From Tannerella forsythia (GTDB lineage: Bacteria; Bacteroidota; Bacteroidia; Bacteroidales; Tannerellaceae), in NCBI RefSeq assembly GCF_003860135.1, contig NZ_RQYN01000038.1, positions 1 to 43,813 on the forward strand: 43,813 nt of DNA, written 5' to 3'. The notes beneath the pieces were generated by a model. The model was not told the DNA's origin and ran no database searches. It worked only from the letters and a program-made list of their open reading frames with translations. This document shows, one piece after another, positions 4,259 through 37,166 of this stretch. Every line of letters begins with the position of its first letter. The first letter of the stretch is position 1. The position numbers and the translations under genes were made by a program.

Positions 4259-6589
4259 TTATCGGCTCACATAGTCGTCGAAGTATTTGCAGTATGTACA
4301 GGCATCTTTGTAGAAGGCCGTTTCTTTATACTGCGTCAGCTGATTGAAATAATTCACCGTTTCGGCGGGTAAATCGTCGACACCCGTGAAATAATCCTGC
4401 CCTTTATACGAACGTTCAAGTTCGTTCTTGGCCAGCGCGAAAAGAATCCGCGCTTTCAGCTCGTCGTCTTTCACTTGTTTGAGCGCCTTTTGCAGGTACT
4501 TCCCGGCCAGATCGGTCGTGTTGCGGTAATACGATTCGCCGTAGATCACATAGAACGTCTGTTCGGGATTGGCCATATAGTTGTCTTTCGCTTTCTCTTC
4601 GTTATAATCCGAATATTTCTCCGAGAAATAGCTGTTGTCGGTATCGAAACGCAGGTAATGGCGGAAATACCCCGTTGTCGTAACGTTATAGAAAAAGTTT
4701 CCGAGCAGGAAATTCGCTTTGGCCGCCTCGGCATCATTTTTCTCGCCGGCTTTCCGGAGCTTCAGCAATGCGTCGGTGACGTCGTTCTCGCTCATCCGTT
4801 GTTTGATAAAGGGGAAGTTGGCCAGATAATCGTCGCGCATCACGTCTTTCTCGGCTCCGCTGTACCACTCCCGGATATTGTATCCGAAGATACGGGCGGA
4901 GACGTGTATTCTGGCTTTCTTTTCGGCCTGAAAATACCGATGAGCCGCTTCGAGGTTACCCTCCGTCAGGAAAAAAGTTCCGTAGAGGAGGTTGAACGAA
5001 TCGTCCCGAAGGTTTTTATCGAGCCACGTCTCCAATTCGTTTTTGTTCTTCTTGTTATGAAATGCGGCCAGCTCGTCGAGCAGCGGTTTCTGGAGATTTC
5101 TCCGCACCGATGCGAGCGTATTGCTGATCAGAAAAGCCTTGGCATATTCCTTTTGCAGATAGTAACGGTTGGCGAGGATTTGGAGGAACGTCCGGTTCGA
5201 CGGATTGTTCCGGTCGAGCATCTGCGCGTATTGAGCATGGAGCGTGCGTTCGGTCTCCGGGCTGATCTGCGTCTGCTCGGCTATATAAAGATGGGCGGCG
5301 ATGATGTCTTTCTGGCGCGCGTAAGTGGCGTCGGCAGTCGTTATCTGCGCGAGGTGGTTACGGGCTTGTGCGAAGTCTTTACGCAGGAAGCAGAGGTAAG
5401 CCGTCGTCAAGTTCCAGAAATCTTTTTTGCGTGCCAAACGAATCATCTTGGCAGACAGCTTGTACGATGCTCCCAGAAAATTCGTGATCTCTTTCTCTGT
5501 GAGTAACGGATACCGTTTGTCGGCGGCTTTCAGCGAATAAGAATACCGGTCGGCCAACACATCCCGTTCGATGGCATTGATGGCGCGTACCATCAGTACT
5601 TTCGCCTCGATGGCGTCGGGATCGGACGAGACGATCTTCTCCAACTCATTCAGCGGATTATTGAAAGCCTTGTATCCGAGCATAAAGTAAAGCGATCGGC
5701 GTTCCGCGTCGGTCTGAACGGACGACAACAGACGTTCCGTGTTCCAATCGGCTTGCGGTCTTTCGTTATAGTCATTGTTATGTATCAGAAAGACGGATGC
5801 ATAGGCCGATTTTTTCAGGTCGGCGGAATACGTAAAAACTTTGATAAAGTCGGAAATAGCTTCTTGTGTCCGGCCCAGTCCGTAGAGTGCGCCGGCCTTC
5901 TGACTGAGCGCGTAGTAATACATTTCGGGCTTATAATCGAGTGTTTTGACGTATTTGTCGAACAGCGTCACGGCATCGTTGTATTTCCGGTTGTAATGCG
6001 CGAACCGCACGAGCTGATAGCCGTAACGCAGCTTCAGTTCCTTATCCGTCTCGGCGTTCCAGCTACGTATCAAAACGTTGGTAACTTTCTGCTCATCCAG
6101 TTCGGACACCTCTTTGAGGTCGCTGTATTCGGAATAGTAGTTCCAGCTTTCGGTTTGACGGATGATGTGCATATAAGGCTCCAAGTATTTGGCATAAGCC
6201 AGATAGAGCAAGGCCTGTTTGTGACGCTGCACGAAGTCGGGCGTAAAGAACGCCAGCTTCGGATCAGTCGTTTGACTGCCTTTCGTCAGCGCCTGTATGT
6301 CGGCGCGGGTAGCTTTCATCACCAAATAATGCGCCTGATCATAGTTCAGTCCGAGGTATTTTTGCCATTGTTCGATATTGGCATTGCGCGCCTTCCATCG
6401 CGGGTTGGCGCTTTCGTAAAAAGGATGGTCGTAGCTTAGCAGGAAAGGAGCGTAACGCGGGTCTTTGATCAGTTCCTGCGAGAAGACGTTGCAATAGTCG
6501 GCATCCATCTCATAATAGGAACATCCGAGGGACGGCTGCACAGCGGATACAAAGATCAGAAAAAAGAGACATGTTTTTGCTTTCATCAT
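4259..6589 (-). CDS. large exported helical-repeat protein
   Basis: This 776-residue protein starts with a signal peptide (MMKAKTCLFFLIFVSAVQ); cysteine 23 in SLGC could be a lipidation site, but the lipobox is imperfect. The rest is long, charged and alpha-helical, with spaced A/Y/L patterns such as KYNDAVTLFDKYV, YYALSQKAGALYGLGR and FLLGNFFYNV that look like TPR-type repeats. It probably sits in the periplasm or on the outer membrane as a scaffold. Its ATG overlaps the stop of the upstream lipoprotein gene by one base (TAATG), so the two products are likely translated together. I recognise no named family. Confidence 0.75.
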   Translation of the reverse strand: MMKAKTCLFFLIFVSAVQPSLGCSYYEMDADYCNVFSQELIKDPRYAPFLLSYDHPFYESANPRWKARNANIEQWQKYLGLNYDQAHYLVMKATRADIQALTKGSQTTDPKLAFFTPDFVQRHKQALLYLAYAKYLEPYMHIIRQTESWNYYSEYSDLKEVSELDEQKVTNVLIRSWNAETDKELKLRYGYQLVRFAHYNRKYNDAVTLFDKYVKTLDYKPEMYYYALSQKAGALYGLGRTQEAISDFIKVFTYSADLKKSAYASVFLIHNNDYNERPQADWNTERLLSSVQTDAERRSLYFMLGYKAFNNPLNELEKIVSSDPDAIEAKVLMVRAINAIERDVLADRYSYSLKAADKRYPLLTEKEITNFLGASYKLSAKMIRLARKKDFWNLTTAYLCFLRKDFAQARNHLAQITTADATYARQKDIIAAHLYIAEQTQISPETERTLHAQYAQMLDRNNPSNRTFLQILANRYYLQKEYAKAFLISNTLASVRRNLQKPLLDELAAFHNKKNKNELETWLDKNLRDDSFNLLYGTFFLTEGNLEAAHRYFQAEKKARIHVSARIFGYNIREWYSGAEKDVMRDDYLANFPFIKQRMSENDVTDALLKLRKAGEKNDAEAAKANFLLGNFFYNVTTTGYFRHYLRFDTDNSYFSEKYSDYNEEKAKDNYMANPEQTFYVIYGESYYRNTTDLAGKYLQKALKQVKDDELKARILFALAKNELERSYKGQDYFTGVDDLPAETVNYFNQLTQYKETAFYKDACTYCKYFDDYVSR

Positions 6590-10340: not shown

Positions 10341-10520
10341 GTTTAAGGGCGTTGTTGTACAACAACAGGGTCAAACATGCTGTTTAAGGGTCGTTGTTGT
10401 ACAACAACGGGGCAAAACATGCTGTGGGGCAAAACATGCTGTTTAAGGGTCGTTGTTGCACAACAACGGGGCAAAACACGCTGTTTTAATGTCGTTGTTG
10501 TACAACAACGCCTAAAAACC
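10341..10520. repeat. tandem 42-bp repeat array with 18-bp palindromes
   Basis: Four units begin GTTTAAGGGT or a variant at 10341, 10382, 10441 and 10483. Each contains the palindrome CGTTGTTGTACAACAACG (10351-10366 without its outer pair, 10392-10409, 10451-10468 with a T to C change in the centre, 10493-10510). Units are 42 bases long; a 17-base partial duplication of the unit end (10424-10440) makes one interval 59. The array begins two bases after the transporter stop and ends about 150 bases before pyrH. There are no unique spacers. The rest of the gap (10521-10648) shows nothing recognisable. Confidence 0.9.
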
Positions 10521-35830: not shown

Positions 35831-35838
35831 TATCTTTG
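35831..35838 (+). promoter_or_regulatory. -7 element reading into the 36-kb repeat array
   Basis: TATCTTTG on the plus strand is a perfect match and no gene starts within 500 bases. A transcript from here would run through the 42-bp array to the DUF6261 gene as a leader of about 580 bases, or be an RNA in its own right. Confidence 0.5.
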
Positions 35839-35994: not shown

Positions 35995-36352
35995 TAAATG
36001 CTGAGAAAATCCTCAAATACGGGCGCTTTTAGAGCAAACTATCGCGCGAGCTTTTAAAATCGTTGCTTTTTAGGGCTGACAGGTAGTGCGCGTTGTTAAA
36101 ATCGCCTCATTTCGGGGCAAACGGCCATGAAAATCCCGAAATGCGGCTCTTTTAATGCCCGACAAGCGATGTTAGCCCTAAAAAGCAGCTCTTTTGGGAG
36201 CAAACAAACGCGTTGGCCCCTAAAATTATCGCTTTTGAGGCTTGGCAAGCAGTGTTAGCTCTTAAAATCGTTGCTTTTCGGAGCGGACAATCACGTAAAC
36301 TCCCGAAAGCATCGCTTTTTATAATCGGCGCGTAATGTAAGCCCTTAAAAAA
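35995..36352 (+). repeat. degenerate 42-bp tandem stem-loop array
   Basis: Eight units begin at 36021, 36062, 36104, 36143, 36185, 36228, 36270 and 36311 with lengths 41, 42, 39, 42, 43, 42, 41 and 42, and a half-unit precedes them (about 35995-36020). A loose consensus is GCTTTT-GGGGC-AAACA, then about 12 bases, then GTTAGCCC-TAAAAT. The first and last parts pair within units, for example ATTTCGGG (36109-36116) with CCCGAAAT (36135-36142) and TTTCGG (36276-36281) with CCGAAA (36303-36308), while the sequence itself varies. No unique spacers and no coding frame are present. Confidence 0.75.
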
Positions 36353-36382: not shown

Positions 36383-36405
36383 GAACTTTGTTCAAAACAA
36401 AGTTC
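36383..36405 (+). promoter_or_regulatory. perfect 10-bp palindrome before DUF6261 gene
   Basis: GAACTTTGTT (36383-36392) pairs with AACAAAGTTC (36396-36405) around a CAA loop, followed by TTTAAAT. It ends 17 bases before the ATG. It could be an operator, an attenuator hairpin or a translation-blocking stem; its AT-rich composition is atypical for a terminator. Confidence 0.6.
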
Positions 36406-36422: not shown

Positions 36423-37166
36423 ATGAAAAGAAAAAGATTCGCAGTAGCCGGAATGACTCGATTTACGAATGCCCGGCACGTCCATTTTCACATGCAGACG
36501 TATGAAATGATTGGACAGTATGGATTCGACAAGGTGAATGTACCGTTGACATTGTCGGACGAGTGGAAACGTTGTATCGTCCTTGAGACGGAACTCAACA
36601 ATCAAGCGCGCGCTCATGTCGATACGGCGCGCCTGATCCAAATTGATGCCGAGCGCGACAGTCTGACGACGTTCCTCTTCGGCGCCATCCGTAACGCGAC
36701 CTCCTCGCCGTTTGATACCCAGAAAGCCGCAGGCGAAGAATTAATGATCATCATCAGACCGTACAAAAATTTGCAGCGGCAGGCGCGTGACCGTCAGACG
36801 GCTCAGACGGAAGGGCTGATGCTCGACCTGAAGAAGCCTGAAAACGCGGCGCGCATCACGATCTTGGGGCTTGACAATACGGTGGAGCTTCTGGAGAAGT
36901 CGAACCGGAGATATCAGGAGATCAGAAGCGGACTGACGAGCCAGAAGGCGGCCGAAATGGTAGAGGGACTCTCAAGCGTTCGCCCGCAGACGGACGAGAT
37001 CTATCATGCGGTAACCGATCGGGTGTTTGCTTCGTACCTGCTTACGCCCGACGCGCAGCGCAAAGAAGAAATCGGAGCATTGATAGACCGGATCAATCTA
37101 TTCATCGCCGAACAAAAAGCGGCTTACAAGCAGAGTCAGGCGCAAAAGACGAAAGGCGACGAATAA
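36423..37166 (+). CDS. DUF6261-like hypothetical protein
   Basis: This 247-residue, highly charged, mostly helical cytoplasmic protein has no signal peptide, membrane helix or catalytic motif. It begins MKRKRFAVAGMTRFTNARHV and has the stretch NARHVHFHMQTYEMIGQYG, then heptad-like helices near 150-185 (ILGLDNTVELLEKSNRRYQE). It resembles the Bacteroidales family DUF6261, recognised from memory, with moderate certainty. The gene stands alone behind the tandem array and a palindrome, so the non-coding context is its most notable feature. Two hairpins follow: 37172-37196 and 37241-37274. Confidence 0.65.
   Translation: MKRKRFAVAGMTRFTNARHVHFHMQTYEMIGQYGFDKVNVPLTLSDEWKRCIVLETELNNQARAHVDTARLIQIDAERDSLTTFLFGAIRNATSSPFDTQKAAGEELMIIIRPYKNLQRQARDRQTAQTEGLMLDLKKPENAARITILGLDNTVELLEKSNRRYQEIRSGLTSQKAAEMVEGLSSVRPQTDEIYHAVTDRVFASYLLTPDAQRKEEIGALIDRINLFIAEQKAAYKQSQAQKTKGDE

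What the first reader, a model, noticed from the sequence alone, without database searches (positions are those of the whole stretch)
35995..36352. Degenerate 42-bp tandem stem-loop array before a DUF6261 gene
Eight units of 39-43 bases (starts 36021, 36062, 36104, 36143, 36185, 36228, 36270, 36311) have diverged in sequence, yet most keep a TTTT-GGG...CCC-AAAA pairing. Units such as 36109-36142 (ATTTCGGG/CCCGAAAT) and 36274-36309 (TTTCGG/CCGAAA) differ in bases but pair within themselves, which hints at selection on structure. A -7 element at 35831 could transcribe it. It could be a long structured leader, a multi-hairpin RNA or a protein-binding array.
Basis: partly seen in the sequence, partly recalled or inferred. 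Interest (0 to 1): 0.75.

Follow-up and report, generated by a model that had tools for sequence, protein, structure and literature searches.

The report
Protein family with private repeat arrays
Genes of an uncharacterised bacterial protein family (DUF6261) are mostly preceded by a row of palindromic DNA repeats spaced 41-42 letters apart, whose letters differ from gene to gene and in several cases reappear elsewhere in the same genome, which points to an undescribed protein-plus-repeat system.

Summary
The array is real: eight degenerate units, arms at 36027-36317 every 41-42 bp, upstream of a DUF6261 gene (36423-37166) in a Tannerella-like genome. It is one case of a wide rule. Of 102 DUF6261 genes, nearly all from the same genus, 85 have a tandem array upstream: 84 of period 40-43, one of 83. 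In other Bacteroidota genera 47 of 56 have one within 600 bp upstream and 1 of 55 downstream. Repeat sequences differ between gene lineages, but site spacing stays 41-42 bp in 154 of 166 cases. Units carry a short dyad. Stems show no compensatory excess and no G-U preference, so RNA structure is not supported. Arrays of the same sequence also lie without the gene elsewhere in the genome (window 10341-10519 is one), and array plus gene has been copied as a unit. Best reading: a two-part cassette whose helical protein probably binds the palindromes of its own array as DNA, four helical turns apart. Binding is inferred. My searches of the held papers found no description.

The parts
36023..36352 (+). 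Degenerate 41-42 bp tandem array, eight units, linked to the DUF6261 gene
   Evidence: the close relative G025 has it at 95.7% identity over 328 bp
36423..37166 (+). DUF6261 gene, 247 aa, all-helical by prediction
   Evidence: PF19775, E 1.1e-35; AlphaFold model mean pLDDT 90.9, pTM 0.56
35831..35838 (+). TATCTTTG, a Bacteroidota-type -7 element (consensus recalled), before the array
36383..36405 (.). 10-bp inverted repeat between array and start codon, identical in the close relative
10341..10519 (.). Orphan 42-bp array (GTTGTTGTACAACAAC palindromes) of the family linked to another DUF6261 gene (contig C182, locus L007); starts just after the stop codon of an SNF-family transporter gene, about 150 bp before an amino-acid-kinase-family gene (pyrH by my reading)

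Best explanation
The array and the DUF6261 gene form one two-part cassette. SHOWN: DUF6261 genes in several Bacteroidota classes are mostly preceded by a tandem array with 41-42 bp spacing; repeat sequence follows the protein lineage; units carry a short dyad in the pooled data; arrays of the same sequence occur elsewhere in the same genome without the gene for the four families searched; array and gene have been copied or converted together. INFERRED: each DUF6261 protein recognises the dyad of its own repeat as double-stranded DNA, probably as a dimer per site. Sites 41-42 bp apart lie about four helical turns apart, so bound proteins sit on one face and could bind cooperatively. The array before the gene would regulate that gene; orphan arrays would be further binding sites. 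Protein and repeat change together, so paralogues stay insulated from one another.
For: Linkage: 85 of 102 genes, 78 of 88 with at least 500 bp upstream; 13 of the 15 own-genome genes; 24 of 27 loci, one from each of 27 other genomes of the order. Control, duplicates removed: other genera 47 of 56 upstream, 1 of 55 downstream, 0 of 17 unrelated ORFs upstream; Tannerella 36 of 48 against 22 of 284 unrelated ORFs. Spacing: 41 or 42 bp in 154 of 166 site pairs; 41-43 in 35 of 35 pairs from arrays with under 75% unit match. Dyad: longest stem 6.5 against 4.3 in mononucleotide shuffles; complementarity 0.84 at 2-7.5 bp from the centre against 0.62 in shuffles treated alike, and no difference outside that range; stem positions vary less than others (7.2% against 12.7%). 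DNA rather than RNA: G-T 83, A-C 73, no compensatory excess; promoter-like element on either side of the array. Repeats follow the protein: arrays match in 10 of 10 pairs with 80% or more protein identity, 1 of 6 at 70-80%, 0 of 12 at 60-70%, 1 of 2,629 below 30%. Orphans.
Confidence: 0.5

Rival explanations
1. A selfish two-component repeat system that works like RAYT and REPINs: the DUF6261 protein, by an unknown chemistry, spreads its array-gene cassette and gene-less arrays through the genome.
For: Three copies in one genome share 95-97% identity from the first palindrome of the array to within a few bases of the stop codon, with flanks that show no other match than one 53-bp piece in one of the three pairs. 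Orphan arrays of a family match each other in the array and little beyond, and sit in varied intergenic places. Copy number reaches 51 in one genome.
Against: No transposase or nuclease family is convincingly matched. No consistent target-site duplication at 13 array borders. Gene conversion between existing copies could give the same sharp ends. No empty site was found: the closest relative keeps the window orphan and more distant ones are not syntenic there.
Confidence: 0.22
2. An RNA system like type III toxin-antitoxin: the array is transcribed and cut into 41-42 nt RNAs that bind or restrain the DUF6261 protein.
For: Lineage-private repeats directly upstream of a protein gene, unit length near that of type III antitoxin repeats (recalled); promoter-like element before the array in the window and in 18 of 78 loci; good RNA fold on the + strand.
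Against: No wobble preference and no covariation; promoter-like element between array and gene in 19 of 85 loci; no terminator-like site on the + strand between array and gene in the window; arrays far from any DUF6261 gene; no toxin family matched.
Confidence: 0.18
3. Passive minisatellites or MITE-type repeats that happen to lie near DUF6261 genes.
For: Porphyromonas gingivalis has a MITE with 41-nt tandem repeats (PMC4596501, first part of section 7 read); Tannerella has many arrays away from DUF6261 genes.
Against: Upstream-biased linkage in several classes; spacing kept in strongly diverged arrays; P. gingivalis-type terminal repeats not clearly enriched around 13 arrays (3 against 1.6 shuffled).
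Confidence: 0.05

Closest known systems
RAYT / REPIN (REP-associated tyrosine transposase with dispersed palindromes), PMC3116915 (abstract and section 12 read)
   Same: A protein gene near its own palindromic repeats, repeat groups tied to particular protein copies, further copies dispersed between genes
   Different: No Y1/HuH transposase matched; repeats form head-to-tail arrays of 41-42 bp spacing, on the upstream side; many parallel families per genome
Type III toxin-antitoxin (ToxIN), PMC8860590 (passages read)
   Same: Tandem repeats directly before a protein gene, repeat private to its protein (the latter recalled)
   Different: No stranded RNA constraint seen; arrays elsewhere in the genome; protein predicted all-helical, whereas ToxN has strands; promoter position not fixed
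P. gingivalis MITE464/PgRS and BrickBuilt, PMC4596501 (abstract and first part of section 7 read)
   Same: Dispersed elements with 41-nt or 23-nt tandem repeats in another Bacteroidales member
   Different: Those have IS5-like terminal repeats, and no partner gene was described in what I read; whether they lie near DUF6261 genes was not tested
Iteron or operator arrays bound by their neighbouring gene's product (recalled)
   Same: Phased direct repeats with dyads upstream of the gene
   Different: Here the sequence differs between paralogue lineages while spacing is kept, and many such pairs coexist in one genome

Membership tests
DUF6261 (PF19775) | Match to the Pfam model over its curated cut-off | tested here: met
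   Window protein 123.3 bits against 27
RAYT / REPIN | Protein is a Y1 (HuH) tyrosine transposase | tested here: not met
   15 members scanned against Pfam: DUF6261 in all, no transposase at E 0.1
RAYT / REPIN | Gene-associated palindromic repeats also dispersed outside genes | tested here: met
   8 places for one family, 3, 3 and 2 for others in the own genome; places at contig ends (C182 and C183; C125 and C2) may be halves of one array
RAYT / REPIN | Repeats occur as inverted doublets | tested here: not met
   Head-to-tail arrays with dyads inside units
Type III toxin-antitoxin | Tandem repeat array directly upstream of the gene | tested here: met
Type III toxin-antitoxin | Repeats fold as RNA (stranded structure) | tested here: not met
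   G-T 83 against A-C 73, compensatory 13 against 10.6 permuted (57 of 80 arrays had a stem that could be counted); pseudoknots themselves not modelled
Type III toxin-antitoxin | Promoter before the array and terminator between array and gene | tested here: inconclusive
   Promoter-like element before the array in 18 of 78, after it in 19 of 85; terminator tested in the window only, none on +
Type III toxin-antitoxin | Known toxin family (ToxN, CptN, TenpN) | tested here: not met
   no such match among 15 members at E 0.1
PgRS/BrickBuilt MITE | IS5-like terminal inverted repeats around the array | tested here: inconclusive
   3 matches within 2 mismatches in 7.7 kb of flank of 13 arrays, 1.6 in shuffles
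DNA-binding operator array | Protein binds the repeat | not testable with these tools
   needs a binding assay

The most novel reading that the evidence does not exclude
DUF6261 and its array are a new class of two-component mobile repeat system: each protein recognises only its own palindromic array, copies or maintains the array-gene cassette and gene-less arrays in the genome, and paralogues diverge into dozens of mutually insulated protein-repeat pairs, with array spacing locked to four helical turns by how the protein assembles on DNA.
Probability: 0.25. Interest if true: 0.92.

Novelty: categorically new. Interest (0 to 1): 0.8.

Why it matters
A family of unknown function, found in 28 of 204 sampled genera of its order, gets a testable partner. 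Up to 51 such genes in one genome, most with their own repeat, would be a natural collection of orthogonal protein-repeat specificities, useful for learning how recognition diverges. If DUF6261 binds these arrays it is a nucleic-acid-binding protein that the libraries searched here do not recognise.

Tried and rejected

Literature: 'DUF6261' gave one paper, on streptococci, listing only. Searches gave no paper, one unrelated paper each (listing only). PMC5771137 was seen in passages, nothing on these arrays. Searches are listings used to choose papers. The library lacks most subscription papers, so 'not in print' is not claimed.

Full report
WHAT WAS CHECKED. The window is contig C158 of a draft genome of 3.3 Mb. 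It is too degenerate for default tandem-repeat settings, but with milder penalties it appears at 36023-36351. Its T-rich arms recur at 36027, 36068, 36109, 36150, 36192, 36233, 36275 and 36317. The gene behind it, 36423-37166, is DUF6261.

THE ARRAY IS THE RULE, NOT A CURIOSITY. The own genome has 15 DUF6261 genes; 13 of them show an array of about 41-42 bp units (one as 83 bp) upstream, with differing sequences. I then collected DUF6261 loci from relatives, including a closed same-genus genome (G030) with 51 genes (regions fetched). After removing repeated fetches, and counting genes with identical last 300 bases once (so the window gene is counted through its close relative L050), 102 genes remained; all but a few are from the same genus. 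Of these, 85 have an array upstream; with at least 500 bp of upstream sequence it is 78 of 88. The criterion admitted periods 37-46 and their multiples, but the periods found were 42 (44), 41 (36), 40 (2), 43 (2) and 83 (1). In 27 loci, one from each of 27 further genomes (27 of the 48 with a match in the order search), 24 have one: 18 of 41 bp and 6 of 42 bp. Of 17 loci from the phylum search and one earlier locus, 12 have one; one miss (L128) has a misplaced start. Control, with duplicates removed: in other genera 47 of 56 DUF6261 genes have an array within 600 bp upstream and 1 of 55 downstream; in Tannerella 36 of 48 upstream and 7 of 48 downstream, against 22 of 284 and 18 of 259 for unrelated ORFs. 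Two records from other collections fit: a Parabacteroides distasonis gene annotated DUF6261 (NZ_OY725748.1) and a gene on an unannotated faecal scaffold each have a 42-bp array upstream.

SEQUENCE IS FREE, SPACING IS NOT. Pairs of DUF6261 genes with at least 80% protein identity share array sequence in 10 of 10 cases (mostly orthologues of very close species or recent copies, so not independent); at 70-80% 1 of 6, at 60-70% 0 of 12, at 50-60% 1 of 23, at 40-50% 2 of 80, at 30-40% 0 of 400, below 30% 1 of 2,629. Yet the distance between neighbouring sites is 41 or 42 bp in 154 of 166 cases, and 41-43 in 35 of 35 cases from arrays whose units match under 75%. Arrays so diverged would be expected to have lost register by small insertions and deletions if spacing were free (inference).

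WHAT A UNIT CONTAINS. Unit consensuses hold longer perfect stems than mononucleotide shuffles (mean 6.5 against 4.3; 34 of 80 individually at p 0.05). Around the best centre, complementarity is 0.84 at 2-7.5 bp against 0.62 in shuffles treated alike, with no difference nearer or further out. In the L007 family most arrays begin and end with the palindrome (my reading). Stem positions are more conserved than others (7.2% against 12.7% changed), but changes are not compensated: 13 double changes that restore pairing, permuted mean 10.6, maximum 17. Broken pairs are G-T 83 times, A-C 73 times and other 137 times (G-T against A-C p 0.47), so neither strand is favoured as RNA. In the window alone, arms pair with their own unit no better than with other units. 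The promoter-like TAnnTTTG lies in the 250 bp before the array in 18 of 78 loci (5.2 expected from shuffles, but 13 of 78 on the reverse strand, so that enrichment is not strongly directional) and between array and gene in 19 of 85 (3.5 expected, 3 on the reverse strand). In the window it lies before the array, so there the array is probably transcribed. Together this looks more like a conserved duplex-DNA site than an RNA structure.

ORPHAN ARRAYS OF THE SAME SEQUENCE. Four array families were searched in the own genome. The family of locus L007 has 8 places, one of them at window 10341-10519; those of L001 and L002 have 3 each; the window's own has one further place, on C172, seen as two short matches. 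Some places lie at contig ends (C182 and C183; C125 and C2) and may be halves of one array. Similarity between family members is largely confined to the array. Among fetched arrays, 15 of 54 orphans of G030 match a DUF6261-linked array of G030 and 1 of 54 matches one of G000; for G000 it is 2 of 6 and 0 of 6 (the orphan set includes some repeats inside coding sequence, and the two backgrounds differ in size, 52 and 13 arrays). Flanking genes are varied: transporter and pyrH, adenosylhomocysteinase and ispG-like, response regulator and fumarase-like, a susC-like gene (several names are my reading of the sequence). The window orphan is kept in the close relative G025; in G030 a 42-bp array of unrelated sequence lies upstream of its pyrH, in a locus where no such transporter was found. 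G030 has no detected L007-type array although it has a 50% identical relative of that protein, in line with repeats turning over as proteins diverge. No convincing DUF6261 remnant lies near own-genome orphans.

ARRAY AND GENE TRAVEL TOGETHER. In G030 three loci share 95-97% identity over about 1.4 kb that begins at the first palindrome of the array and ends within a few bases of the stop codon. Beyond that, only a 53-bp piece shared by two of them was matched in the stretches held. Copying or gene conversion would both explain this; either way array and gene behaved as one unit. A second pair (L080, L085) shares a longer stretch.

MECHANISM AND RANKING. I rank DNA recognition of its own phased sites first (0.5), a RAYT-like spreading system second (0.22), an RNA antitoxin-like array third (0.18), passive repeats last (0.05). 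The first two are compatible. The genomic association is firm; the binding step is inference. I call it categorically new because the two nearest kinds, RAYT/REPIN and type III toxin-antitoxin, each fail a tested defining feature; that judgement rests on the held papers and libraries only.

Noticed in passing
L009 and L012, roughly 480-530 bp before the DUF6261 start codon: Runs of 8-9 G followed by TATTT in the leaders of two related DUF6261 genes, a possible phase-variable tract.
   Followed up: no
L147 about 4690-4960 (between an adenosylhomocysteinase-like gene and the orphan array): A dispersed repeat of about 260 bp with many matches in the close relative G025, next to but distinct from the 42-bp array.
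   Followed up: no
L088:3731-5293 (G030): A very long array of 82-bp units, about 19 copies, downstream of a DUF6261 gene.
   Followed up: no
L065, L080 and L085 after the DUF6261 stop codon (G030): REP-like repeats (GGGGCGTATTGCATACGCCCC and CCGGGTACATGT types) after some DUF6261 genes.
   Followed up: no
L181:2322-2553 (G030): A 42-bp array with TTGACA-type palindromes upstream of pyrH, matching no other locus fetched by then.
   Followed up: partly
window 36383-36405: 10-bp inverted repeat just before the DUF6261 start codon, identical in the close relative.
   Followed up: partly
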